Position numbers and translations under genes: made by a program. Positions 50,961 to 64,000 of a stretch of 64,000 nt of DNA are shown here, piece by piece. Each line of letters begins with the position of its first letter. Position 1 is the first letter of the stretch. The stretch lies in the IMG/VR virus record IMGVR_UViG_3300046474_000370, positions 37,111 through 101,110 of that record. One strand, 5' to 3'. Source of the stretch: a virus. The notes beneath the pieces are model-generated. The model made no database searches. It was not told the origin of the DNA and worked only from the letters and a program-made list of their open reading frames with translations.

Positions 50961-51193
50961 TGTCCAAGCTTGACCGCAACCGGCCGCATGCGGCCGTCTA
51001 CTACGATGACCTGGGCCGGGCATTCGAGCAGGACGGCCAGTTCTTTACTGCCAGCGGCGCCCTGTGGGAACCGGATTCGGCCGAGGTGGCCGAGCCGGCG
51101 GCCGCGGTGAAGCCGGCGAAGGCCGCGCCCAAGGCCAAGCCGGCCGCGGCGCCCGAGGACGTCCAGCTGGCCGCGCAGATGGCGGGTGCATGA
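50960..51193 (+). CDS. small phage protein with Ala/Lys-rich tail
   Basis: A 77-aa protein (SKLDRNRPHAAVYYDDLGRA, then an Ala/Lys/Pro linker and VQLAAQMAGA). The QLAAQMA end also occurs in the scaffold-like protein (EQLAAQMAAGA at about residues 95-105), an intriguing match but low complexity. Confidence 0.6.
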   Translation: MSKLDRNRPHAAVYYDDLGRAFEQDGQFFTASGALWEPDSAEVAEPAAAVKPAKAAPKAKPAAAPEDVQLAAQMAGA

Positions 51194-52809
51194 TCTGGCG
51201 CGCCAGCGACCCCGAAGGCGACGAGGCGGGCAAGGTCAAGTTCGAGATCGTCCAGTACACGCGCGGCACCGGGCTGGACATCGGGTGCGGGCCACATAAG
51301 GCGTTCCCGCACTTCATCGGGGTCGATAGCAAGAAGGACAGCGCGTTGTTCGGCATCGAGTTCACGCCGGACAACGTGGTGGAGGACGCCAGCCGGCTGC
51401 CGCAGGTGCCGGACGGCCGGCTCGATTTCGTGTTCTCGTCGCACCTGCTGGAGCACATCGAGGACTACGCGGCGGCGCTGGCCGAGTGGTGGCGCACCAT
51501 CAAGGATGGCGGCCACCTGGTGCTGTACCTGCCGCATCGCGACCTGTACCCGAACATCGGCCAGCCCGGCGCCAACATCGACCACAAGCACGATTTCCTG
51601 CCCGAGGACATCGAGCTGGCGATGGCCGGCGTGGCCGCCGAGGCCGCGGGCCGGCGCAAGAGCGGCTGGGACCTGCTGGTCAACGAGGTGCGCGCCGAGC
51701 GCAACGAATACTCGTTCCTCCAGGTCTACCGCAAAACCAGCGAGGATTTCAGCCTGGTCCGTTCGTGCCAGTGGCCGCAACCGGAAAAAACCGCCTGCAT
51801 CAGCCGCTTCGGCGGCTTCGGCGACATGATCCAGGCCGCCAACCTGTTGCCCGAGCTGAAACGGCAGGGCTACCACATCACCTTCAACACCACCCCCAAG
51901 GGCCAGGACATCCTGCGCCACGACCCGCACATCGACGCCTGGCTGATCCAGGACGACGACCAGGTGCCGAACCACGAGCTGCCGCTGTTCTGGAGCGCGC
52001 TGGCGCGCCGCTACACCAAGTTCATCCAGCTGTCCGAGTCGATCGAGGGCACCTTGCTGGCGATGCCCGGCCGCGCCAACCACATGTGGCCGCACGCGGT
52101 GCGCGCCGCGGAGCTGAACCGCAATTACCTGGAGTGGACCAGCCAGCTGGCCGAGCTGCCGTACCAGTCGGAAGCGAAGTTCTACCCGAGCACCCACGAA
52201 ATGGCGCAGGCGGCCGGCTACCTGGGCGGGATTCGCGCCGCGCGCGCGCCCAAGGAGCTGATGATCGGCCAGGCCACTCCGCCGGTGTTCACGGTCATGT
52301 GGGTGCTGTCAGGCTCGTCGATGCACAAGTTCTATCCGTGGATGGACACGGTGATGGCGCGCGTGCTGCTCGAGATGCCGGAGGCGGTCATCATCCTGAA
52401 CGGCGACGAGGCCTGCGCGATCCTCGAATGTGGCTGGGAACTGGAGCCGCGGGTGTACCGCGAGAGCGGCAAGATGGGTATCCGCGCCGCGCTGACCTTG
52501 GCGCAGATGGTCAAGTGCGTGGTCGGGCCCGAAACCGGGGTGCTCAACGCGGTCGCGTTCGAGGACAACGCCAAGGTGGTGTTCCTGTCGCATTCGACCC
52601 ATGAGAACCTGACCAAGCACTGGCGCAACACGGTGGCGCTGGAGCCGTGGGGGCAGCACTGCTATCCGTGCCACCGGCTGCACTATGGCAAGGCGTTTTG
52701 TGACGAGCACCAGGAGACCGGCGCGGCGATGTGCCAGGTCAAGATCACGCCAGACCGGGTCTATGAGGCGATCAAGGCGGCGTACACGGCATGGAAGGAA
52801 GCGGCATGA
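51190..52809 (+). CDS. methyltransferase-glycosyltransferase-like fusion protein
   Basis: The 539-aa protein has an N-terminal SAM-methyltransferase fold (about residues 1-190): TGLDIGCGPHKAFPHFIGVD (motif I), RLDFVFSSHLLEHIEDY and GGHLVLYLPH. The C-terminal part (about 200-539) resembles heptosyltransferase/GT9-like proteins: ISRFGGFGDMIQAANLLPEL and VVGPETGVLNAVAFEDNAKV. So both methyl and sugar transfer seem to be combined. In the capsid-adaptor region it may modify phage structural or host surface molecules. Substrates unknown. Confidence 0.8.
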   Translation: MIWRASDPEGDEAGKVKFEIVQYTRGTGLDIGCGPHKAFPHFIGVDSKKDSALFGIEFTPDNVVEDASRLPQVPDGRLDFVFSSHLLEHIEDYAAALAEWWRTIKDGGHLVLYLPHRDLYPNIGQPGANIDHKHDFLPEDIELAMAGVAAEAAGRRKSGWDLLVNEVRAERNEYSFLQVYRKTSEDFSLVRSCQWPQPEKTACISRFGGFGDMIQAANLLPELKRQGYHITFNTTPKGQDILRHDPHIDAWLIQDDDQVPNHELPLFWSALARRYTKFIQLSESIEGTLLAMPGRANHMWPHAVRAAELNRNYLEWTSQLAELPYQSEAKFYPSTHEMAQAAGYLGGIRAARAPKELMIGQATPPVFTVMWVLSGSSMHKFYPWMDTVMARVLLEMPEAVIILNGDEACAILECGWELEPRVYRESGKMGIRAALTLAQMVKCVVGPETGVLNAVAFEDNAKVVFLSHSTHENLTKHWRNTVALEPWGQHCYPCHRLHYGKAFCDEHQETGAAMCQVKITPDRVYEAIKAAYTAWKEAA

Positions 52810-53261
52810 CAGTCATTGTGTGGGACGGCACCACGCTCGCGGCCGACCGGCGCGCGGGCGACGCCTGGATGAAGTGCGGCACGGTGGTCAAGATCGCCAG
52901 GGTCAATGGGCACCTGGTCGGTTGCGCCGGGGTCGCGGCCGATGCGCGCGAGGTGGTCGCCTGGTACAGCGCCGGGGCCAACCCGGCACTGTACCCGGCC
53001 GGGATACGCGGCAAGGAAAACGGCGGCGCCAAGATGCTGGTGATTACGCCCGCGGGCGTGGTGCGCATCTACGACAACTCGCCGTTCCCGATCGAGTATT
53101 GCGAGGCGCCGCACGGGATCGGGCGACGGATGGCGATCGGGAGCGGGCGCGAGGCGGCGATGGCGGCGATGCTGGCCGGCTGCGGCGCCCGCCGCGCGGT
53201 CGAGATTGCGACGCTGATCTGCGATGGTGTCGGCAATGGCATCGACACGCTGGAGCTGTGA
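52806..53261 (+). CDS. HslV/proteasome-like Ntn hydrolase
   Basis: The 151-aa protein starts MTVIVWDGTTLAADRRAGDA; removal of Met would leave Thr as N-terminal nucleophile, as in HslV and proteasome beta subunits. The following GCAGVAADAREV, MAIGSGREAAMAAMLAG and AVEIATLICDGVG motifs fit this fold, and an Asp and a Lys (KCGTVVKIA) stand near the expected catalytic places. No HslU-like ATPase is nearby. It may process virion proteins or be a self-compartmentalised protease in the infected cell. Confidence 0.8.
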   Translation: MTVIVWDGTTLAADRRAGDAWMKCGTVVKIARVNGHLVGCAGVAADAREVVAWYSAGANPALYPAGIRGKENGGAKMLVITPAGVVRIYDNSPFPIEYCEAPHGIGRRMAIGSGREAAMAAMLAGCGARRAVEIATLICDGVGNGIDTLEL

Positions 53262-53263
53262 CC

Positions 53264-53920
53264 ATGACCCTCGGCGACCTGATGACGCTGTTTCGCAACG
53301 AGGTGGACGACCTGGCCCAGCCCTACCTGTGGTCGGACGAGGAGGTGATCGAGTTCGCCAACGATGCCGAGCTGGAGGCGGCGCGGCGTGCGCGCCTGCT
53401 GGTCGATTCGAGCACGCCCGCGATTGCCCAGCTGGCGGTGACGGCCGGCCAGCCGCTGCTGGCGCTCGACCCGCGCGTGATGTTCGTGCGGCGCGCGCGC
53501 TTTGCCGGCAGCCTGCCGCTGCGGCGCATGAGCATGCAGGACATGGAAGGGTACGACCCGTACTGGCAGGATGCGGCGGCCGGCACCCCGCGCGCCTTCG
53601 TGCCCGACTACGAAACCGGCAAGCTGCTGCTGTGGCCGCCGCCGGCGGCGAATGGCACGCTGCTGCTGACGGCGGTGCGCGCGCCGCTGGTGGAGCTGGC
53701 GGAGGACGAGGACCGGCCCGAGATCGCGCCGCGCTACCACCGCAGCCTGCGCTTCTGGATGATGGCGCGCGCCTACGGCAAGCAGGATTCGCAGGCGAAT
53801 GACCCGAAGAAGGAACTGGCCAGCCTGGCGCTGTTCGAGCAGGAATTCGGCAGGAAGTCGGCCGCGATCGACGAGGAGTGGATCGTGCGCGAGCAGATGG
53901 AAGGCGACGGCACGTTCTAA
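53264..53920 (+). CDS. phage head-tail adaptor-like protein
   Basis: The 218-aa protein reads LMTLFRNEVDDLAQPYLWSD, FANDAELEAARRARLLVDSS, LDPRVMFVRRARFAG and a long C-terminal helical part (RYHRSLRFWMMARAYGKQDS). This is a common phage structural family (DUF6682-like, if memory is right) found between capsid and tail genes, probably an adaptor below the portal. The ATG at 53264 lies 2 bp after the previous stop. Confidence 0.75.
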   Translation: MTLGDLMTLFRNEVDDLAQPYLWSDEEVIEFANDAELEAARRARLLVDSSTPAIAQLAVTAGQPLLALDPRVMFVRRARFAGSLPLRRMSMQDMEGYDPYWQDAAAGTPRAFVPDYETGKLLLWPPPAANGTLLLTAVRAPLVELAEDEDRPEIAPRYHRSLRFWMMARAYGKQDSQANDPKKELASLALFEQEFGRKSAAIDEEWIVREQMEGDGTF

Positions 53921-54472: not shown

Positions 54473-54590
54473 CCGCCTGCTCGACGGTATCTGGGATGTG
54501 ACCGAGCCGCTGGCCGGGCGCTGCCCGGTGTGCGCGTTCTGGCGCGGGGTGCTCTACGGCATCGTGGTCGGTGTGCTGGTGATGCTCTGA
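54447..54590 (+). CDS. small single-pass membrane protein
   Basis: A 47-aa protein (PVFARALDRLLDGIWDVTEP, then CPVCAFWRGVLYGIVVGVLVML). A CxxC precedes a C-terminal hydrophobic helix. It overlaps both the micro-ORF and the next gene's ATG (1 bp). Could be a holin-type or virion-membrane protein; unproven. Confidence 0.5.
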   Translation: MPVFARALDRLLDGIWDVTEPLAGRCPVCAFWRGVLYGIVVGVLVML

Positions 54591-55804
54591 TGGCGGCCAA
54601 GACCGTTGCGCTGGAGCGCTTCGCCGGCATCGCCAACCTGCTCGCGCCCGAGCGCATCAGCAGCTACCCGAGCCGGGAGCGCGCCGACATCGAGCTGGTC
54701 GACGCGCGCAACGTCGTCATCGACAACGCGCACCGGCTCTCGCGCCGGGCCGGGCAGTCGCTGCGGCTGGCCGCGTCCGGCGCTCATTCGCTGTGGTCGA
54801 ACGGGGCGCTGTGCCTGTATGTGGCGGGCGGCGTGATGTACCGGCTGAACCCGGATTTCACCAGCGTGCCGGTGGCCGCCGGGCTGGCCGATGCGGCGCT
54901 GTGCTATGTGGAGGTCAACGGCCGGGTCTACCACTCGAACGGCGACACCAGCGCGGTACTGGACGAGGGCCGGGTGCGCGGCTGGGGTATCGGCCTCGAC
55001 CAGATCACCGTGAGCGCGCGCGCGATCGCCGGCAACCTGGCGGCCGGCACCTACCAGTATGCGCTGACCCTGCTGCGCGAGGATGGCCAGGAGAGCGGCG
55101 CCGGGCTGGCGCGCGCGATCGAGTTGGGCGATGGCGCCGGGCTCGCCTTCAGCTGGGCGGTGCCGGCCGACCCGGCGATCACCCACGCGGCACTGTACCT
55201 GACCCAGCCCAACGGCGAAACCTTGTTGCAGGCGGCCGTGCTGGAGGTCGGGTTGGGCGCCTATGCGTACCTGGGCGGGGCGCGCGCGTTGCCGCTGGCG
55301 ACCCAATGGCTGGACGCGCCGCCGCCGGGCCAGGCGCTGGCCTACTACCGTGGCCGGATTTACATCGCCAGCGGCGCGGTGCTGTACGCCACCGCAGCGC
55401 TGGCCTATGAACACTGCGACCTGCGCGACTTCCTGCTGTTCGACGGCAGCCCGATCGCGTTGCTGGCGGCGGTCGACAACGGCCTGTTCGTCGGCACCGA
55501 GCGCGCCGTCTATTTCCTGGCCGGCGGCACGCTGGCCACCGCCAGCCTGTCCCCGCGGCTGGCGGTGGGCGCGGTGCGCGGTTCGCTGGCCTATGGCGAC
55601 GGCGAGGCCGTCACCGGCCGCCGCGAGCTGTCCGGCCAGGCCGTGGCGCTGTTCGCCACCACCGACGGCATCGTCATGGGCATGCCGGACGGCAGCATGG
55701 TCGAACTGACCCGCGCGCGCTACCGGATGCCGGCCAGCGGGCCGGCCGGCGCGCTGTTCGAGCCGGGCGCGTTCAGCCGCTACCTGCTGGCCATGCAAGG
55801 CTGA
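54590..55804 (+). CDS. phage structural protein, beta-propeller-like (tail hub type)
   Basis: The 404-aa product is beta-rich with repeated blades (ALCLYVAGGVMYRLNPDFTS, ALCYVEVNGRVYHSNGDTSA, AYYRGRIYIASGAVLYATAA, GLFVGTERAVYFLAGG). This resembles phage tail stabilisation/hub proteins (P22 gp10-like position after adaptor). It would join the neck to fibres. The role is inferred from fold pattern and position. Confidence 0.65.
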   Translation: MAAKTVALERFAGIANLLAPERISSYPSRERADIELVDARNVVIDNAHRLSRRAGQSLRLAASGAHSLWSNGALCLYVAGGVMYRLNPDFTSVPVAAGLADAALCYVEVNGRVYHSNGDTSAVLDEGRVRGWGIGLDQITVSARAIAGNLAAGTYQYALTLLREDGQESGAGLARAIELGDGAGLAFSWAVPADPAITHAALYLTQPNGETLLQAAVLEVGLGAYAYLGGARALPLATQWLDAPPPGQALAYYRGRIYIASGAVLYATAALAYEHCDLRDFLLFDGSPIALLAAVDNGLFVGTERAVYFLAGGTLATASLSPRLAVGAVRGSLAYGDGEAVTGRRELSGQAVALFATTDGIVMGMPDGSMVELTRARYRMPASGPAGALFEPGAFSRYLLAMQG

Positions 55805-56664: not shown

Positions 56665-56712
56665 GCCCGCGCATTGCGCCGCCGCGCGTCCCCTTCTGAC
56701 AAGGAACTGGCC

Positions 56713-57759
56713 ATGCTGCTATTCATTGATGGATTCGACCATTACGCAACCGCCGACCTGGGCAAGAAGGGGTGGACGGCGACGGGCACCGACCCGACCA
56801 ACCTGGTGGTCAGTGCCAGCGCCGGGCGCCGTGGCGGCGGCGCGCTCGCGCTGGGCGGCGGGGGGAATATCAACGATGTAATGGGCGGCCGCGGCATCGC
56901 CCAGCTGGCCACGGTGGTGATCGGCTTCGCGCATCAGGCCTCGGCCGCCGGCACCACCCTGTGCGCACTGCACGATGCGACCAGCAGCACGCGCCAGGTC
57001 ACGCTCAAGCACAACACGGATGGCACGATCACGGCCTACCGGGGCTCGTCGGTGCTCGGCACCGCGCTGGGGACGTCGACGCTGACGATGACGGCCGGCG
57101 GCTTCAACTTTGTCGAGTGCAAGGCCACGATCCACCCGAGCGCCGGCAGCGTCGAGGTGCGCGTGAACGGGGTCACGTTCATGTCGCTGACCGGGCAGAA
57201 CACGCGCAGTTCGAGCAACAGCTACGCCAACGCGATCCGCCTCGGCTGGGACACCAACCCGCCAGCCGGGACCACGGCCGTGTTTGACGACCTGTACGTG
57301 TGCGACACCAGCGGCAGCGTCAACTATGATTTCCTCGGTGACTGCCGGGTCGATACGGTGTACCCCGTCGCCGATGGTTTCTACGGGGCGTTCACGCCAT
57401 CGACCGGCACCAGCCACTATGCGCTGGTGGACGAGGCGCCGCCGAACACCACCGATTATGTCGATGGCGCCGCCGTGGGCGACCGCGACAGCTACGACTG
57501 CGGCGCGCTGTCCGCGCTGCTGAGCGAGACCGTGTTCGGGGTCCAGGTCAACGCCGCCGCCCTCAAGGATGACAGCGGCACCCGCAGCCTGGCCACGATG
57601 GCGCGTTCTGGCAGCACCAACAGCGACGGCAGCACGGTCGCGCTGGCCACCAGCCAGGGCATCCTGTCGCAGGTGTTCGAGTCCGACCCGGCCAGCGCCG
57701 GCGCGTGGACCGAAAGCGCCGTCAATAGCGCCGAGTTCGGCGTCAAAGTGGCGGCCTGA
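56713..57759 (+). CDS. LamG/concanavalin-like phage structural protein
   Basis: The 348-aa protein has a lectin-like jelly-roll pattern in its first 210 residues (LFIDGFDHYATADLGKKGWT; VRVNGVTFMSLTGQNTRSS; AVFDDLYVCDTSGSVNYDFL) followed by a beta-rich C-terminal part. Similar proteins are found among fibre and tail genes in phages. Probably a receptor-contact or fibre component. Confidence 0.65.
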   Translation: MLLFIDGFDHYATADLGKKGWTATGTDPTNLVVSASAGRRGGGALALGGGGNINDVMGGRGIAQLATVVIGFAHQASAAGTTLCALHDATSSTRQVTLKHNTDGTITAYRGSSVLGTALGTSTLTMTAGGFNFVECKATIHPSAGSVEVRVNGVTFMSLTGQNTRSSSNSYANAIRLGWDTNPPAGTTAVFDDLYVCDTSGSVNYDFLGDCRVDTVYPVADGFYGAFTPSTGTSHYALVDEAPPNTTDYVDGAAVGDRDSYDCGALSALLSETVFGVQVNAAALKDDSGTRSLATMARSGSTNSDGSTVALATSQGILSQVFESDPASAGAWTESAVNSAEFGVKVAA

Positions 57760-57761
57760 CC

Positions 57762-59303
57762 ATGACCGTCGCGCGCGTCAGCCAACTGGCAGTCGAGGTC
57801 CTGCGCAGCGGCATCGCCCCGCTGACGGGCGACATCACCCTGTCTGCACTGACGCTCAGTGGCGCGGCCGGGGTCGGCGCGGCCGGCGACGCCACGCTGG
57901 AACTGCTGACGCTCGATGCCAACAGCGGCGCCGTGGCGCAAGGCAGTGCCACCCTGCCCGGGCTGACGCTGGCGGGTGCGGCACACCTGGCCTACCCGAT
58001 GAGCGGCGCGGTCGATCTCGGCGCCGGCGCCGGCACCATGTTCGCGCTGACCGGGGCCATGACCACCAGCGCCGACAGCAACGGCGATTCGTTCTTCCCC
58101 GAGCTGGTGGTCGAGGGCGGGCTCGACCCGGCGCTGGCGTGGCCGGAGCTGGCCCTGAGCGCCGACGCCGTGGCCGGCACGGTCGCCAGCGGGCGCGCGC
58201 TGCTGACGGCGCCGCTGCTCGAGGGCGGCATCGACGCCGGCGTGCGGCTCCCCGCGTTCACGCTGGCCGCCAGCGGCGAGGCGGCGGCGCTGATCACCGG
58301 CCAGGTGCAGCTGGCGCCGCTGAAGCTGGCCGGGTCGCTGGCGCCGGCCCTGGCACTGCCGCTGCCGGGCGTGGCCGGGACGCTGCTGGCCGGCACCGTG
58401 GCGGCGGCCAGCTGCACCTTGCCGGACTGGACGGTGGCGGCCGATTGGGACCCGGCCGGCGCGCTCGACATGCCGGCCTGGACGCTGGCGGCGGCGGCGC
58501 TGGCCGGCAGCGTGGCCGATGGCCACGCGACGTTCGGGCGGCTGGCCGTCGACGCCCGCCATTACCAGGACACGGTGGCCGCCGGCGCGGTGCTGTTCGG
58601 GGTGCTGACGGCGGACGGCACGGCCGGCGCCGACAACCTGATTGCGGCCCAGGTCAGCCTGCCGCGCCTGACGCTGGCCGGACTGGCGCTGTCCGGCGCG
58701 CGCGGCAGCGCGACCCTGACGCTGCCGCTGGTGACGCTCCACGCGGCCGGCCACAGCCAGACCATCGGCCAGGCCGCGATCGAGCTGCCGGTGCTGCTGG
58801 TGGACGCCGTCGGCGGGGCCCGCCGCGACAGCACGGCCGTCACCACGATCGCACTCAACACCCAGCTGGCGGCGGTGACCCGGTTCGATGCGTTGCCGGC
58901 CAACAGCTTCGCGCGCTTTGGCGGGGTGACGCTGGCCGCCACCGCCGACGGCATCGTCGCGCTGATGGGCGACACCGACCTCGGCCAGCCGATCGCGGCC
59001 ACGCTGGTGGCCGGCGTCAGCGACTATGGCAGCGACAGCATCAAGCGCATCATCGCCGGTTACGTCGGCTACCGCGCCAGCGGCAGCGTCGAGCTGACCC
59101 TGATCGCCGATGGCCACGACGAGTATGTGTACCCGCTGGCGCCGCGCCGCGCCGACGGCGCGCTGCACCCGGCGCGGGTCAAGTTCGGGCGCGGCGCCGA
59201 AGGCCGCTATTGGCAGTGGAAGCTGGCCAACCTGGACGGCGCCGATTTCAGCGTCGACAGCCTTGGCCTGGATGTCGAGACGTTGTCGCGCAAGGTGCGC
59301 TGA
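57762..59303 (+). CDS. repeat-rich virion protein with conserved C-terminal domain
   Basis: The 513-aa product has repeated units of about 22-27 residues with the form (S)ATLxLPxLTLAGxA (e.g. ITLSALTLSGAAGVGAAGDA; ATLELLTLDANSGAVAQGSA; ATLPGLTLAGAAHL). They run to about residue 360. The C-terminal about 140 residues are non-repetitive (ADGIVALMGDTDLGQPIAAT; DEYVYPLAPRRADGALHPAR; WQWKLANLDGADF). The repeats may form a beta-solenoid or fibrous stalk, the end part a cap. Analogous to the tail of the 41351 protein. Confidence 0.65.
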   Translation: MTVARVSQLAVEVLRSGIAPLTGDITLSALTLSGAAGVGAAGDATLELLTLDANSGAVAQGSATLPGLTLAGAAHLAYPMSGAVDLGAGAGTMFALTGAMTTSADSNGDSFFPELVVEGGLDPALAWPELALSADAVAGTVASGRALLTAPLLEGGIDAGVRLPAFTLAASGEAAALITGQVQLAPLKLAGSLAPALALPLPGVAGTLLAGTVAAASCTLPDWTVAADWDPAGALDMPAWTLAAAALAGSVADGHATFGRLAVDARHYQDTVAAGAVLFGVLTADGTAGADNLIAAQVSLPRLTLAGLALSGARGSATLTLPLVTLHAAGHSQTIGQAAIELPVLLVDAVGGARRDSTAVTTIALNTQLAAVTRFDALPANSFARFGGVTLAATADGIVALMGDTDLGQPIAATLVAGVSDYGSDSIKRIIAGYVGYRASGSVELTLIADGHDEYVYPLAPRRADGALHPARVKFGRGAEGRYWQWKLANLDGADFSVDSLGLDVETLSRKVR

Positions 59304-59336
59304 TGCGCGCCCAACCACCCAAAGCAGGGGGCCCGG

Positions 59337-61664
59337 ATGTCTGAATGCTCTGCCACCACGATCGTCACCGACCTGGCCGACCTGGCCCCGGTCTCGGTGA
59401 CACCGTTGCCGCCGCTGCCGGCGCCGCCGCTGCTGGCGCCGCTCGGGCCGTTCGAGGGCGCGCCGCCGATGCCGGAGCTGGCGCCGCTCGATCCGCTGGA
59501 GCCGCCCGAGCAATTCGAGCTGGTCCCGCTGGCGACGCTGCCGTATATGGATTCGGCCGCGTCCGGCGTGGTGCGCGAGGTGCTGGCGCAGACCGGCGAG
59601 CTGGCCGCCAGCGCGCAGGCGCAGGCGATCGCCAACATCGAGGCGCTGGCCGCCTACCAGCCGACGTTTGCCCCGCTGGAGCCACCGCAGGTGCCGACCG
59701 CGCCCGCGGTCACGCTGCCGGCGCTGGGCAGCGCGCCGACCGCGGGCGACCTGACGCCGCAGTTCGCCAGCGCCCCGGTCGCGCCGCAGCTGGGCGCCCC
59801 GCAGGTGCTGGAGCTGGCCGACCCGCCCGTGTTCGATGTGACCGACGTGGCGATCATGGATATCCCGCTGCCGGACCCGTTCGATGCGCTGATGCCGGAC
59901 GAGCCGCAGTTCGCGCCGATCGGGGTGGCGGTCGAGCCGAACGTGGAACTGCCGCCCGTGCCGAGCCTGCTGGCACTGGCGCTGCCCGAACCGCCGCAGG
60001 TGGCGCTGCCGCTGTTTGACGCCGAACTGGGCAGCGGCCCGGCGGTGCCGGAGGCGCGCTTCGTGTATGCCGAGGTGGAATACGCCAGCAGCTTGCTGGG
60101 GGCGCTGCAAGCCCGCTTGAGCCCGCTCGTGGCGGACATGGCGGCGACCGGCATCGACCAGTCGGTCGAGCAGGCGATCTGGGACCGCGCGGCCGACCGC
60201 GAGGCCTTGCTGACCCACCGCGCCACCGGCGAGGCGCTGCGCCTGATGACCGCGCGCGGCTTTCGGATGCCGGAGGCGGCGCTGGTGCGCATCGTCCAGC
60301 AGGCGCTGCAGGGCGGGTTGCACCGCACCGCCGGGCTGCGCCGCGACATCGCGGTCGAGCAGGCGCGCCTGCGCCAGCAGAATTTCCGCTTTGCGCTGGA
60401 AACCGCGACCACGCTGGAGAGCCGCCTGCTGGACCAGGCCAACGCGGCGCAGGCACGCGCGCTGGCCGCCGCCAAGGCCAGTGTCCAGACCGAGATCGCG
60501 ATCTTCAATGCACGGGTCCAGCTGTTCAGCGCCGATGTGCAGGCGTTCGCGGTCAAGGCCAGCGGGTTCCGCGCGCGGCTGGAGGCAGCGCTCGGGGTGA
60601 TCGCCGTCTACCGTTCCCAGCTGGAAGCGCAGCGCACGGTCGGCGAGATCAACGGGCAGAAGGTGGCCATCTACAAGGCCCAGATCGAGGCGGTCCATTT
60701 CATCGTCGACACCTACCGCGCGCGGGTGGACGCGGCCAAGGCGCAGATCGAGGCCAACCAGGCGTTCGTGGATGCCTACCGCGGCCGGATCGACGCCTTC
60801 AAGGCTCAAATCGAGGCCAAGAGCAGCGAATACGACAGCTACGCCGCGCGCGTCAAGGGCCAGGTCGCCAAGGCCGAGCTGTTCGAGCAGCAGGTGCGCA
60901 GCTACCAGTCGCGGGTGGAGGCGTTCGCGGCCCAGGTCAAGGCCAATGTCAGCGTGCAGACGCTGCGCTTCAAGCAGGCCAGCGAATTCCCGCTCGAATT
61001 GTACAAGACGCAGATGCAAGCCTACCAGATCGGGACCGCGGCCAGCGTCGACCAGCTGCGCGCGGTGGCAGGGGTGTTCAGCGCGCGGGTCAAGGCGTTC
61101 GGCGCCGAGGAAGGCGCCAAGGCCGGGCACCTGGACGCGCAGGCCAGGATCGCCGCCGCCAACGCCCAGGCGGCGCTGGCGCAAGCCGAGGTGCTGCTCG
61201 ACACCGGGCGCGCCAACCTGCAAGTGGTGCAGGGTGCGGTCGAGACCGCGCAGGGCAACCTGCGCAGCGCCGGCCAGCTGGCCGGCCAGCTGGCGGCGGC
61301 CGCCATCGCGGCGCAGAGCGTGCATGCGTCGATCGCCGAAAGCGGCTCGCAGTCGGTCGCCAATTCGGCCTCGCGTTCGAGCAGCGACAGCAAAGCGACG
61401 GCCACCAGCAGCAGCACCGGCAGCTCGGCCTCGACCAACGTGGCGCACAGCGCCACCAGCGGCACCTCGACCAGCAATTCGCTCAGCAACACCGAAGGGC
61501 GCAGCTATAACCGCGGGGTCAGCAGCAGCTATTCGGTGCGCATGTCGAGCAACAATTCGACCGCCGTCTCGGCGCATAACTCCTACCTCGGCAGCGTGTC
61601 GATCGGCAGCAGCGCCAGCATGGTGCGCAGCTGCACCGATTCGACCGTGATCTCCGATTCCTGA
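59337..61664 (+). CDS. long coiled-coil virion protein with Ser-rich tail, copy A
   Basis: The 775-aa protein has a Pro-rich N-terminus (about residues 1-240, PPLP/APP repeats), a large helical region (about 240-655) and a Ser/Asn/Thr-rich tail (about 655-775; NSLSNTEGRSYNRG). The helical part has near-regular 21-residue repeats (YxxxIEAxKAQIEA type), so a long coiled coil. It shares its whole layout with the next gene. A virion internal (ejection) or fibre role is possible; the sequence alone does not decide. Confidence 0.7.
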   Translation: MSECSATTIVTDLADLAPVSVTPLPPLPAPPLLAPLGPFEGAPPMPELAPLDPLEPPEQFELVPLATLPYMDSAASGVVREVLAQTGELAASAQAQAIANIEALAAYQPTFAPLEPPQVPTAPAVTLPALGSAPTAGDLTPQFASAPVAPQLGAPQVLELADPPVFDVTDVAIMDIPLPDPFDALMPDEPQFAPIGVAVEPNVELPPVPSLLALALPEPPQVALPLFDAELGSGPAVPEARFVYAEVEYASSLLGALQARLSPLVADMAATGIDQSVEQAIWDRAADREALLTHRATGEALRLMTARGFRMPEAALVRIVQQALQGGLHRTAGLRRDIAVEQARLRQQNFRFALETATTLESRLLDQANAAQARALAAAKASVQTEIAIFNARVQLFSADVQAFAVKASGFRARLEAALGVIAVYRSQLEAQRTVGEINGQKVAIYKAQIEAVHFIVDTYRARVDAAKAQIEANQAFVDAYRGRIDAFKAQIEAKSSEYDSYAARVKGQVAKAELFEQQVRSYQSRVEAFAAQVKANVSVQTLRFKQASEFPLELYKTQMQAYQIGTAASVDQLRAVAGVFSARVKAFGAEEGAKAGHLDAQARIAAANAQAALAQAEVLLDTGRANLQVVQGAVETAQGNLRSAGQLAGQLAAAAIAAQSVHASIAESGSQSVANSASRSSSDSKATATSSSTGSSASTNVAHSATSGTSTSNSLSNTEGRSYNRGVSSSYSVRMSSNNSTAVSAHNSYLGSVSIGSSASMVRSCTDSTVISDS

Positions 61665-61674
61665 AGGGCGACCA

Positions 61675-63858
61675 ATGGCCAACAACAGCGGGAACCTGGG
61701 GGCAGCGCCGTCGTTCGGCAGCCCCGACGCGCCGCCCACGCCGGGGCAGATCGGCAGCGCGACGGCGCTGGTCGGGGATGTGCTGGCCGAGTCGCGCGGG
61801 CTGGCGGCGCAGTCGGCCGGGCGCGGGCTGGCCGCGATCGCGGCGCTGGGCGACTTCGACGTCGCGATCCCGGCGCTGGATTTCCCGGCCCTCGTGATCC
61901 CGGCGCTCGATGCCGCCGCACCCGGCACCGCGCCGGCCGACCCCGGCGACTTGGGCATCACGCTGCCGGCGTTGCCGGCGGCGCCGGCGCAGGGGCCGTT
62001 CGGCGTGATCGGGGCCGGCGAGGCGCCCGAGGCCAACCTGGTGCCGCCGCTGCTGCTCGACATCGCGTTGCCCGATCCGCTGGCGATGCTGGTCCCGGCG
62101 GCGCCGGAGCTGCCGCTGGTCGGCGCGCCGGTCGAGCCCGATTATCAGCTGCCGGCGCCGCCGCAGTTTGTCGCGCTGAACCTGCCGGATGCGCCGGTGT
62201 TCGCGATCGCGCCCTTCGACGCCCAGGCGCCGCAGGCGCCGGACGCGCCCGACCCGCAGTTCGCGTGGGCCGAGGTGGCCTACCACAGCGACGCGCTGGC
62301 CACGCTCAACACGCGCCTGCTGGACCTGGTGAACGGGACGGCCAGCGGCCTGCCGGCCGAGATCGAGAATGCGATCTGGCAAAAGGGCTGCGACAGCGCG
62401 GCCATGCTGAGCTATGTGGCGGTCGACAGCGCGTTGCAGGACAGCGCGGCGCGCGGCTTTGCGATCCCCGGCGGCCAGCTGGTACGGGTGGTGCAGCAGG
62501 CGCTCGAGGCGGCGCTGGCCAAGGATGCCGAGGCCTCGCGTACGGTGATGGTGGAGGCGGCGCGGCTGGAGCAGCAGAACTTCCAGTTCGCGTTCGGCCA
62601 GGCCTTGCAGCTGGAGTCGCGCCTGATCGAGCTGTTCAACCAGGTGCAGGAGCGCGCGCTCGACGCCGCCCGGTTCCGCTCGGCGGCGCTGATCGACCTG
62701 TTCAATGCCCGGCTCAACCTGTACCAGGCCGACGTGCAGGCGTTCGCGGCCAAGGTGGAGGTGTTCAAGACGCGCTTGCAGGCGGCGCTCGCGCAGCTCG
62801 ACCTGTACAAGGCGCAGCTGGAGGCGGTCCATTTGCGCGGCGAGCTGAACGTGCAGATCGTGGGCCAGTACAGCGCCCAGGTGGAGGCGGTGAAAGCGAG
62901 CACCGACATCTTCAAGGCGCGCGTCGAGGCGGTCAAACTGAGTGTCGAGACCAACCGCAACCGAACTGAGCTGTACCGGGCCCAGGTCGAGGCCTATGCC
63001 GCGCTGGCCAAGGCCAATGGCGCGCAGGTGCAGGGCTATCTGGCGCGCTTGCAGGCCGAGCATTCCAAGGCCCAGCTGTTCGGCAGCCAGGTGGCGGCCT
63101 ACACCGCACGGGTCGAGGCGTACCGGGTGCTGACCGATGCCAAGCTGAGTGACGTCACGTTCCAGGTGCGCCAGTTGCAGGAGTTCCCGATGGAACTGTA
63201 CCGGGCACAGATCAGCGGCTACCAGGCGCAGGTCGGGGCCGAGGCGGCGCGCCTGGCCGCCACCGCCGAAGTGTTCCAGCTGCGCGTGGAGGGCTACGCC
63301 GCGGTCGAGCGCGCGAATGCCCAATACGGCGCGGCGCAGGCCGACGCCGCCGCCACCACCACCCGCCTGTATGCGTCGCAGGCGCAAATCGCGCTGCAGG
63401 ACGGCATGAACAAGATGAAGCTGGCGCAGCTCCAGTCGGAGACGGCGCAGTCGGCGCTGCGCGCGGCCGGCCAGCTGACTACCCAGCTGGCGGCGGCGGC
63501 GATGAGCGCGCGCAACGTGTCGGCGTCGCTGACCGGCTCGGTCAGCAATTCGGCCGGCACCTCGGCCTCGGTCAACCAGTCGGTGTCGAACAGCGTCAGC
63601 ACCAGTTCGAGCACGAGCGTGTCCACCAACCACAGCGCCACCACCGGCATCAACAACAGCGCCAGTGTGGCGATCAACCATTCGCAGTCCAGCTCGAACA
63701 ACCAGACCTGGTCCGACACGACCGACCAGTCGGTCAGCAACTCGACCTCGACCTCGGCCAGCAACGAAACCTCGCGCGGGGTGCGCAACAGCCGCGACAC
63801 CTCGGTGCGCCACAGCGACAACGCCACGATCTCGACGCTGTACCAGCACCGCAAGTAA
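61675..63858 (+). CDS. long coiled-coil virion protein with Ser-rich tail, copy B
   Basis: The 727-aa protein is a paralogue of the preceding gene: Pro/Ala-rich N-terminus (about 1-200), the motif RGFAIPGGQLVRVVQQALEA corresponding to RGFRMPEAALVRIVQQALQG in copy A, the same helical repeats with EFPMELYRAQISGYQAQVGA (EFPLELYKTQMQAYQIGTAA in A), and a Ser/Asn/Thr-rich tail (about 620-727). It begins 10 bp after copy A. The pair may form a hetero-oligomeric rod. Confidence 0.7.
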   Translation: MANNSGNLGAAPSFGSPDAPPTPGQIGSATALVGDVLAESRGLAAQSAGRGLAAIAALGDFDVAIPALDFPALVIPALDAAAPGTAPADPGDLGITLPALPAAPAQGPFGVIGAGEAPEANLVPPLLLDIALPDPLAMLVPAAPELPLVGAPVEPDYQLPAPPQFVALNLPDAPVFAIAPFDAQAPQAPDAPDPQFAWAEVAYHSDALATLNTRLLDLVNGTASGLPAEIENAIWQKGCDSAAMLSYVAVDSALQDSAARGFAIPGGQLVRVVQQALEAALAKDAEASRTVMVEAARLEQQNFQFAFGQALQLESRLIELFNQVQERALDAARFRSAALIDLFNARLNLYQADVQAFAAKVEVFKTRLQAALAQLDLYKAQLEAVHLRGELNVQIVGQYSAQVEAVKASTDIFKARVEAVKLSVETNRNRTELYRAQVEAYAALAKANGAQVQGYLARLQAEHSKAQLFGSQVAAYTARVEAYRVLTDAKLSDVTFQVRQLQEFPMELYRAQISGYQAQVGAEAARLAATAEVFQLRVEGYAAVERANAQYGAAQADAAATTTRLYASQAQIALQDGMNKMKLAQLQSETAQSALRAAGQLTTQLAAAAMSARNVSASLTGSVSNSAGTSASVNQSVSNSVSTSSSTSVSTNHSATTGINNSASVAINHSQSSSNNQTWSDTTDQSVSNSTSTSASNETSRGVRNSRDTSVRHSDNATISTLYQHRK

Positions 63859-63927
63859 TGCGCGGGCGCGCCCGCGCCGCCCCATCCCACTTTGCCCCGC
63901 CTGTCATTGCCCTGGAGCGCCTAATCC

Positions 63928-64000
63928 ATGTCCAAAATCGACGATCTCGCCAACCTGCCGGGCCAGCCCGCCCCCGACAACAGCCCGCGTGCCGCCCGTG
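63928..64000 (+). CDS. start of a further phage gene (cut by window end)
   Basis: Opens MSKIDDLANLPGQPAPDNSP; 24 codons are visible without a stop. The ATG follows the coiled-coil copy B stop by 69 bp. Identity cannot be told. Confidence 0.5.
   Translation, partial: MSKIDDLANLPGQPAPDNSPRAAR

What the first reader, a model, noticed from the sequence alone, without database searches (positions are those of the whole stretch)
59337..63858. Two neighbouring paralogous coiled-coil proteins with Ser/Asn-rich tails
Copies A and B have the same plan: Pro-rich start, a helical region with 21-residue repeats, and a Ser/Asn/Thr-rich tail of about 110-120 residues. Matching motifs (RGFxxP...VRxVQQAL, EFPxELYxxQ) show common origin. 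The tails look like low-complexity or beta-solenoid segments, odd for ejection proteins. Two in tandem suggests a heteromeric rod or an evolving fibre.
Basis: seen in the sequence. Interest (0 to 1): 0.6.

Follow-up and report, generated by a model that had tools for sequence, protein, structure and literature searches.

The report
Paired length-matched phage rod proteins
Two neighbouring genes of a short-tailed-phage-like virus encode sister rod proteins in which a proline-rich strand appears to lie along a long helix; in relatives both parts grow in matched steps, which makes rod length readable from sequence.

Summary
A (59337-61664, 775 aa) and B (61675-63858, 727 aa) are paralogues (39% over 675 aa, E 3e-125). 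Both match phrog_10969, a family of unknown function carried by F116-like Pseudomonas podophages, usually as one copy. A and B form separate, fully supported clades, and the pair is kept in all six phages of this subgroup, so the duplication is old.

Main new result: in 141 distinct relatives the main helical segment is nearly fixed (223, 230 or 231 aa). In six giant forms (1,090-2,143 aa) it grows in whole 35-aa steps while the N-terminal proline-rich strand grows in 19-aa steps. Step numbers are equal in five (8/8, 8/8, 12/12, 16/16, 26/26) and 20/18 in one. Two unrelated lineages repeat this with 22-23 and 42 aa. Simplest reading: the strand lies antiparallel along the helix, giving a rod of about 35 nm here, up to about 170 nm in giants.

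A short relative, KPP25 gp04, is in solved structures with a homologue of the gene upstream of A, so a tail rod or fibre is favoured; a needle or ejected tube is not excluded. The Ser/Asn tails are a family feature; no beta-solenoid was predicted. A:B pairing is untested.

The parts
59337..61664 (+). Gene A, phrog_10969 family rod protein, 775 aa
59337..59546 (+). A: Pro-rich N-terminal head specific to the A clade (aa 1-70)
   Evidence: alignment A1
59547..59657 (+). A: N-terminal amphipathic helix (aa 71-107), predicted to sit at the rod tip
   Evidence: alignment, with the helix of B; position inferred
59658..60056 (+). A: Pro-rich extended strand (aa 108-240)
   Evidence: no indels against L006 at 64% identity
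60057..60371 (+). A: conserved core (aa 241-345, VEQAIW...RGFxxP), the part shared with KPP25 gp04 (PDB 26la_X)
60372..60983 (+). A: main part of the rod helix (aa 346-549); the core-to-end gap is 231 aa in A and B
60984..61331 (+). A: EFPxELY kink and end helix (aa 550-665)
61332..61661 (+). A: Ser/Asn/Thr-rich tail (aa 666-775)
61675..63858 (+). Gene B, paralogue of A, 727 aa
61747..61851 (+). B: N-terminal helix (aa 25-59)
   Evidence: AlphaFold2 model
61852..62256 (+). B: Pro-rich extended strand (aa 60-194)
62257..62568 (+). B: conserved core (aa 195-298)
62569..63180 (+). B: main part of the rod helix (aa 299-502; the predicted helix runs 266-502, about 35 nm if straight)
63181..63528 (+). 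B: EFPMELY kink and end helix (aa 503-618)
63529..63855 (+). B: Ser/Asn-rich tail (aa 619-727), Ser alternating with period 2
57762..59303 (+). Neighbouring virion structural gene; its C-terminus matches KPP25 gp06, which shares PDB entries 26la and 44nx with the KPP25 relative of A/B
54530..55804 (+). Head closure Hc3 homologue (context)
52685..53920 (+). SU10-type adaptor homologue (context)

Best explanation
A and B are two anciently duplicated structural proteins of an F116-like phage, each building a thin rod attached to the tail. In each chain the N-terminal proline-rich segment runs as an extended strand along the rod towards a conserved core domain, the chain turns round in the core, and a long heptad-repeat helix runs back antiparallel to the strand to the tip. 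There an EFPxELY kink, a second helix and a flexible Ser/Asn-rich tail follow. Rod length is set jointly by strand and helix, so relatives can lengthen the rod only by adding matched units to both. Shown by sequence: paralogy, conservation of the pair, the fixed rod length, the matched growth. Inferred: strand-helix packing, antiparallel course, oligomeric coiled coil, attachment by the core, exposed tip. Not known: oligomeric state, whether A pairs with B, what the tail binds.
For: Core-to-end helical gap in 141 distinct relatives: 223 aa (48), 230 (47), 231 (26), 395 (6), 265 (1) and the giants 511-1141; the six low outliers (109-206) rest on weak or displaced end-anchor placement. Giants: gap = 231+35k and strand (motif to core) = 68+19j, with (j,k) = (8,8) L027/L036, (8,8) L100, (12,12) L023, (16,16) L024, (26,26) L025, (20,18) L026. 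A permutation of k among the six fits as well in only 2 of 720 orders. Two other lineages: L161 against L162, +22 strand and +42 helix; Y11 against 8P, about +92 strand (repeat 23) and +165 helix (repeat 42). At 1.5 A per helical residue this gives 2.7-2.9 A per strand residue, nearly extended (own arithmetic). The core of A/B matches KPP25 gp04 in PDB 26la/44nx, entries that also hold KPP25 gp06, homologue of the gene next to A. Model of B: helix 25-59, no helix 60-205, helix 266-502, kink, helix 506-611, tail unstructured. The largest rods, about 170 nm if straight, could not lie straight in a head of the size reported for a similar 61-kb podophage (71 nm; PMC9144972). A and B clades 100/100; pair in 6 of 6 phages.
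Against: No coordinates show the strand against the helix; the models are weak (B: mean pLDDT 60.2, pTM 0.25; L100: 45.3, 0.25). L026 breaks the equality (20/18); its units are up to 90% identical over 210 bases, so a collapsed assembly is possible but unproven. The giants fall in one part of the tree, so their step numbers are not fully independent. The gene sits directly before the ejected-protein genes, where a needle or an ejected protein would also be expected. Titles and coordinates of 26la/44nx could not be read, so the place of gp04 in the tail is inferred from shared entries. No mass spectrometry of F116-like virions was found. The 223-aa clade shows a 7-aa helix difference whose strand counterpart could not be tested.
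Confidence: 0.55

Rival explanations
1. Tail needle or plug: the proteins form a central trimeric coiled coil that closes the tail and pierces the outer membrane, as P22 gp26 and SU10 gp18 do.
For: Gene position: after adaptor, Hc3 and tail genes and directly before the ejected-protein genes; SU10 numbers its genes nozzle gp17, needle gp18 (PMC9509320), and P22 has gene 26 before its ejection genes (own knowledge). Long helix predicted.
Against: Rods of 77-172 nm in giants are very long for a needle. In the PDB the KPP25 relative occurs as 3 chains in 2 entries against one gp06 chain per entry, which hints at more copies than one trimer per tail, though symmetry is unknown. No needle family was matched in Pfam, PHROGs or NCBIfam.
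Confidence: 0.2
2. Internal or ejected rod: the proteins are packed in the head or tail lumen and form a channel or scaffold across the cell envelope with the next two gene products.
For: Immediate neighbours downstream are a 924-aa glucosaminidase protein and a 7,099-aa DarB-like protein; DarB-like proteins are virion-associated in JC1 (PMC9144972). A 35-nm rod is of the order of the cell envelope.
Against: The KPP25 relative is modelled in the same entries as a tail protein while KPP25 gp02, gp03 and gp05 gave no PDB match, so it is an ordered part of the particle. Giant rods exceed the head diameter if straight.
Confidence: 0.2
3. The matched growth is accidental: general gene-length drift or assembly error in repetitive genes.
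For: L026 does not match exactly (20/18) and has near-identical units.
Against: Exact multiples in five giants from several separate metagenomes; L027 and L036, 96% identical and from different metagenomes, have the same counts; in all but L026 units have diverged at DNA level (mean identity 0.47-0.61 at the unit lags) with exact repeats of at most about 30 bases, so collapse is unlikely; two other lineages show the same ratio with other unit lengths.
Confidence: 0.05

Closest known systems
phrog_10969 (Pseudomonas phage F116 p57, phage 8P gp21)
   Same: Profile match over most of A and B (E 3.9e-101 and 3.1e-88), same gene position, same plan, Ser-rich end
   Different: F116-like phages carry one copy with a tail of about 25 aa; here two paralogues with tails of 110 and 109 aa; function unknown in the library
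KPP25 gp04 (PDB 26la_X, 44nx)
   Same: Conserved core (E 1.4e-10 with profile A1, 9e-14 with A3), same gene neighbourhood (gp06, Hc3, adaptor)
   Different: 318 aa; most of the Pro-rich strand and rod helix and the Ser-rich tail are missing
P22 gp26 / SU10 gp18 tail needles
   Same: Gene position before ejection genes, helical rod (needle comparison from own knowledge and PMC9509320)
   Different: No sequence match; long Pro-rich strand with matched repeats; rods up to about 170 nm in relatives
SU10 gp12 / DEV gp53 long tail fibres
   Same: Coiled-coil part of a tail fibre in podophages whose adaptor (SU10) is related (PMC9509320, PMC10925440)
   Different: No sequence match found; DEV gp53 carries an esterase-like domain and SU10 fibres a separate distal protein, whereas A/B end in a Ser/Asn-rich segment

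Membership tests
phrog_10969 | Significant match over most of the profile | tested here: met
   A 102-686 to profile 38-628 of 632, E 3.9e-101; B 116-640 to 105-629, E 3.1e-88
phrog_10969 | Gene between Hc3/tail genes and giant ejected-protein genes | tested here: met
   Same order in F116, 8P, Y11, L016 and in the window's genome across the contig junction
KPP25 gp04-type tail protein | Homologous core domain | tested here: met
   E 1.4e-10, 9.3e-14
KPP25 gp04-type tail protein | Same place in the virion | not testable with these tools
   Coordinates and titles of 26la/44nx not available
P22 gp26-type tail needle | Sequence or profile similarity to needle families | tested here: not met
   No such match in Pfam, PHROGs or NCBIfam
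P22 gp26-type tail needle | Single trimer on the tail axis | not testable with these tools
   Needs a virion map
Podophage ejection protein | Packed in the head and released into the cell | not testable with these tools
   No virion or infection data for these phages
Beta-solenoid tail tip | Predicted regular beta coils | tested here: not met
   AlphaFold2 leaves B 612-727 unstructured, pLDDT below 50; a monomer model may miss a trimeric beta fold
A:B heteromer | Direct A-B assembly | not tested
   Only monomer prediction was available; A and B trees agree in branching order, which shows co-inheritance only

The most novel reading that the evidence does not exclude
The family is a two-part length ruler: an extended Pro-rich strand and an antiparallel helix that can grow only together, giving tail rods from a few nm (KPP25) to about 170 nm in otherwise short-tailed phages, with A and B as the two chains of one heteromeric rod.
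Probability: 0.25. Interest if true: 0.8.

Novelty: new variant of a known kind. Interest (0 to 1): 0.6.

Why it matters
phrog_10969 has no assigned function. The matched growth of two separate parts of one chain gives a concrete fold prediction, lets rod length be read from sequence, and points to podophages with appendages far longer than their heads. The A/B clade shows the other way of elaborating the rod, by gene duplication. The short KPP25 form is already solved, so the prediction can be tested at once.

Tried and rejected
Foldseek of the B model against the PDB gave nothing (best E 3.0); against BFVD it gave family members only (A0A6J5LPL9 E 2.5e-14, F116 Q5QF55 E 0.037). The L100 model is too weak to use. 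Pfam and NCBIfam hits (Filament, SMC, Rad50, serine-rich protein) are far below their cut-offs and reflect composition. The 1523-aa antisense ORF 57492-62063 was rejected as a gene: its codon-position GC is 0.88/0.56/0.75 with the peak at position 1, the mirror of the coding strand. A bacterial host was sought: the first genome scan found nothing, the second only distant single-copy relatives in Curvibacter and Comamonas. Low gap values (109-206, six members) were set aside: five have weak end-anchor scores and in L033 pairwise alignment shows an 11-aa deletion after the rod. No paper on entries 26la, 26fb, 26gp, 44nx was found. Two alignments were too diverse for collection scans.

Full report
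Observation. A (59337-61664) and B (61675-63858) are adjacent same-strand genes with coding-type GC3 of 0.92 and 0.94 and purifying selection against their counterparts in contig L006 (omega 0.31 and 0.30). They are paralogues, 39% identical over 675 aa, E 3e-125. The 21-residue repeat holds for A only as a weak top period; B gives 42 and 35, and the giants give 35 and 70. All are multiples of seven, as expected of a coiled coil.

Surroundings. The window is part of a 101,110-base virus record whose two ends share 126 identical bases, so the genome is probably circular or circularly permuted, about 101 kb. Upstream of A lie the major head protein, an SU10-type adaptor, Hc3 and virion structural genes. 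Across the contig junction B is followed by a 924-aa protein with a glucosaminidase domain and a 7,099-aa DarB-like ORF with methyltransferase and helicase regions. The order matches F116, 8P and Y11.

Family. Both proteins match phrog_10969. Among annotated phages relatives are mainly F116-like Pseudomonas podophages, annotated as hypothetical, structural protein or LigA. IMG/VR scans gave many more. Loci carrying two copies are rare: L006, L016, L018 and L019 (F116 appears twice only because its record is frameshifted), and L017 has B at the other end of its contig. With the window that is six phages. In the tree the A sequences (6) and B sequences (5) each form a clade with 100/100 support, next to the giant single-copy clade. 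The duplication therefore predates these phages and both copies have been kept.

Matched growth. Two anchors, the core (VEQAIW...RGFxxP) and the end region (after EFPxELY), delimit the rod helix. In 141 distinct complete members the gap is 223, 230 or 231 aa in 121; the rest are 265 (1), 395 (6), the giants (7), and six low values that rest on weak or displaced end-anchor placement. Giants have 231+35k. The Pro-rich strand between the motif DIPLPDPL and the core is 68 aa in A, B and close relatives and 68+19j in giants. The pairs (j,k) are 8/8 (L027, L036), 8/8 (L100), 12/12 (L023), 16/16 (L024), 26/26 (L025) and 20/18 (L026). Pro residues in the giants' strand have a 9.5-residue period, two per unit. 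Elsewhere in the tree, L161 has +22 strand and +42 helix against L162, and Y11 about +92 and +165 against 8P (the Y11 strand figure counts four 23-aa repeats and leaves out a further short insertion next to the core). The ratio of helix to strand residues is 1.8-1.9 in all three lineages. Since an alpha helix rises 1.5 A per residue, the strand would rise 2.7-2.9 A per residue, close to polyproline or beta geometry. Because strand and helix meet in the core, a strand lying along the helix must be antiparallel to it. This is inference from lengths, not from coordinates.

Structure evidence. The AlphaFold2 model of B (59 sequences) has low confidence overall (pLDDT 60.2, pTM 0.25) but the same plan: helix 25-59, no regular structure 60-205, helices 206-219 and 228-259, one helix 266-502, a kink at EFPMELY, helix 506-611, unstructured tail. 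The strand next to the core (about 161-205) and the following helix to about residue 400 have pLDDT of about 64-84. By sequence profile the core matches PDB chain 26la_X, identified as KPP25 gp04 by exact match of its letters. KPP25 gp06, homologue of the window's 57762-59303 product, is in the same entries, and the Hc3 and adaptor homologues are in 26fb. KPP25 gp02, gp03 and gp05 gave no PDB match. So a minimal relative is an ordered part of a solved phage assembly, most likely the tail.

Function. I favour a tail-attached rod or fibre with the core towards the virion. Straight rods would be about 35 nm for A and B and 77-172 nm for giants, which argues against an internal place in heads of about 70 nm (PMC9144972). 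A tail needle is the main rival because of the gene position (SU10: PMC9509320). The tails evolve faster than the helix (omega 0.46 in A and 0.30 in B against 0.13 and 0.23) but keep their length; Ser alternates with period two in B (z 4.0) and several other tails, weakly in A (z 0.8). Exposed low-complexity tips that touch cell-surface polymers would fit, but this is speculation.

Heteromer. A and B have equal rod lengths and congruent trees, which would be needed for side-by-side assembly, but most of the family has the same rod length, so this proves nothing. It needs a complex prediction or biochemistry.

Noticed in passing
G000 contig 2848-24144 (+), outside the window (L110 from 2848): A 7,099-aa ORF, GC3 0.91, DarB-like with DNA methyltransferase and SNF2-type helicase regions; an unusually large phage protein.
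   Followed up: partly
G000 contig 17-142 and 100985-101110 (window 63875-64000): The contig's last 126 bases are identical to positions 17-142, so the record is probably a complete circular or permuted genome although its ends are not joined.
   Followed up: yes
L023, L024, L025, L026, L027, L036, L100: Giant single-copy relatives of 1,090-2,143 aa; the step numbers are all even, and the strongest periods in most are 38 (or 57/76) and 70 residues, suggesting a double unit as the copying step.
   Followed up: partly
window 51064-52806 (+): A 581-aa gene with a methyltransferase domain between the major head protein and the adaptor gene.
   Followed up: no
window 56674-57759 (+): phrog_2448 protein (E 3.8e-50) of unknown function in the tail gene block.
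   Followed up: no
L007 13473-15366 (NC_006552.1, F116 p57): The F116 reference record looks frameshifted in this gene: the annotated protein stops resembling its relatives after about residue 280 and the homology continues in an overlapping ORF; close relatives in other records are intact.
   Followed up: partly
window 57492-62063 (-): A 1523-aa antisense ORF, a shadow of the high GC3 of the coding strand.
   Followed up: yes
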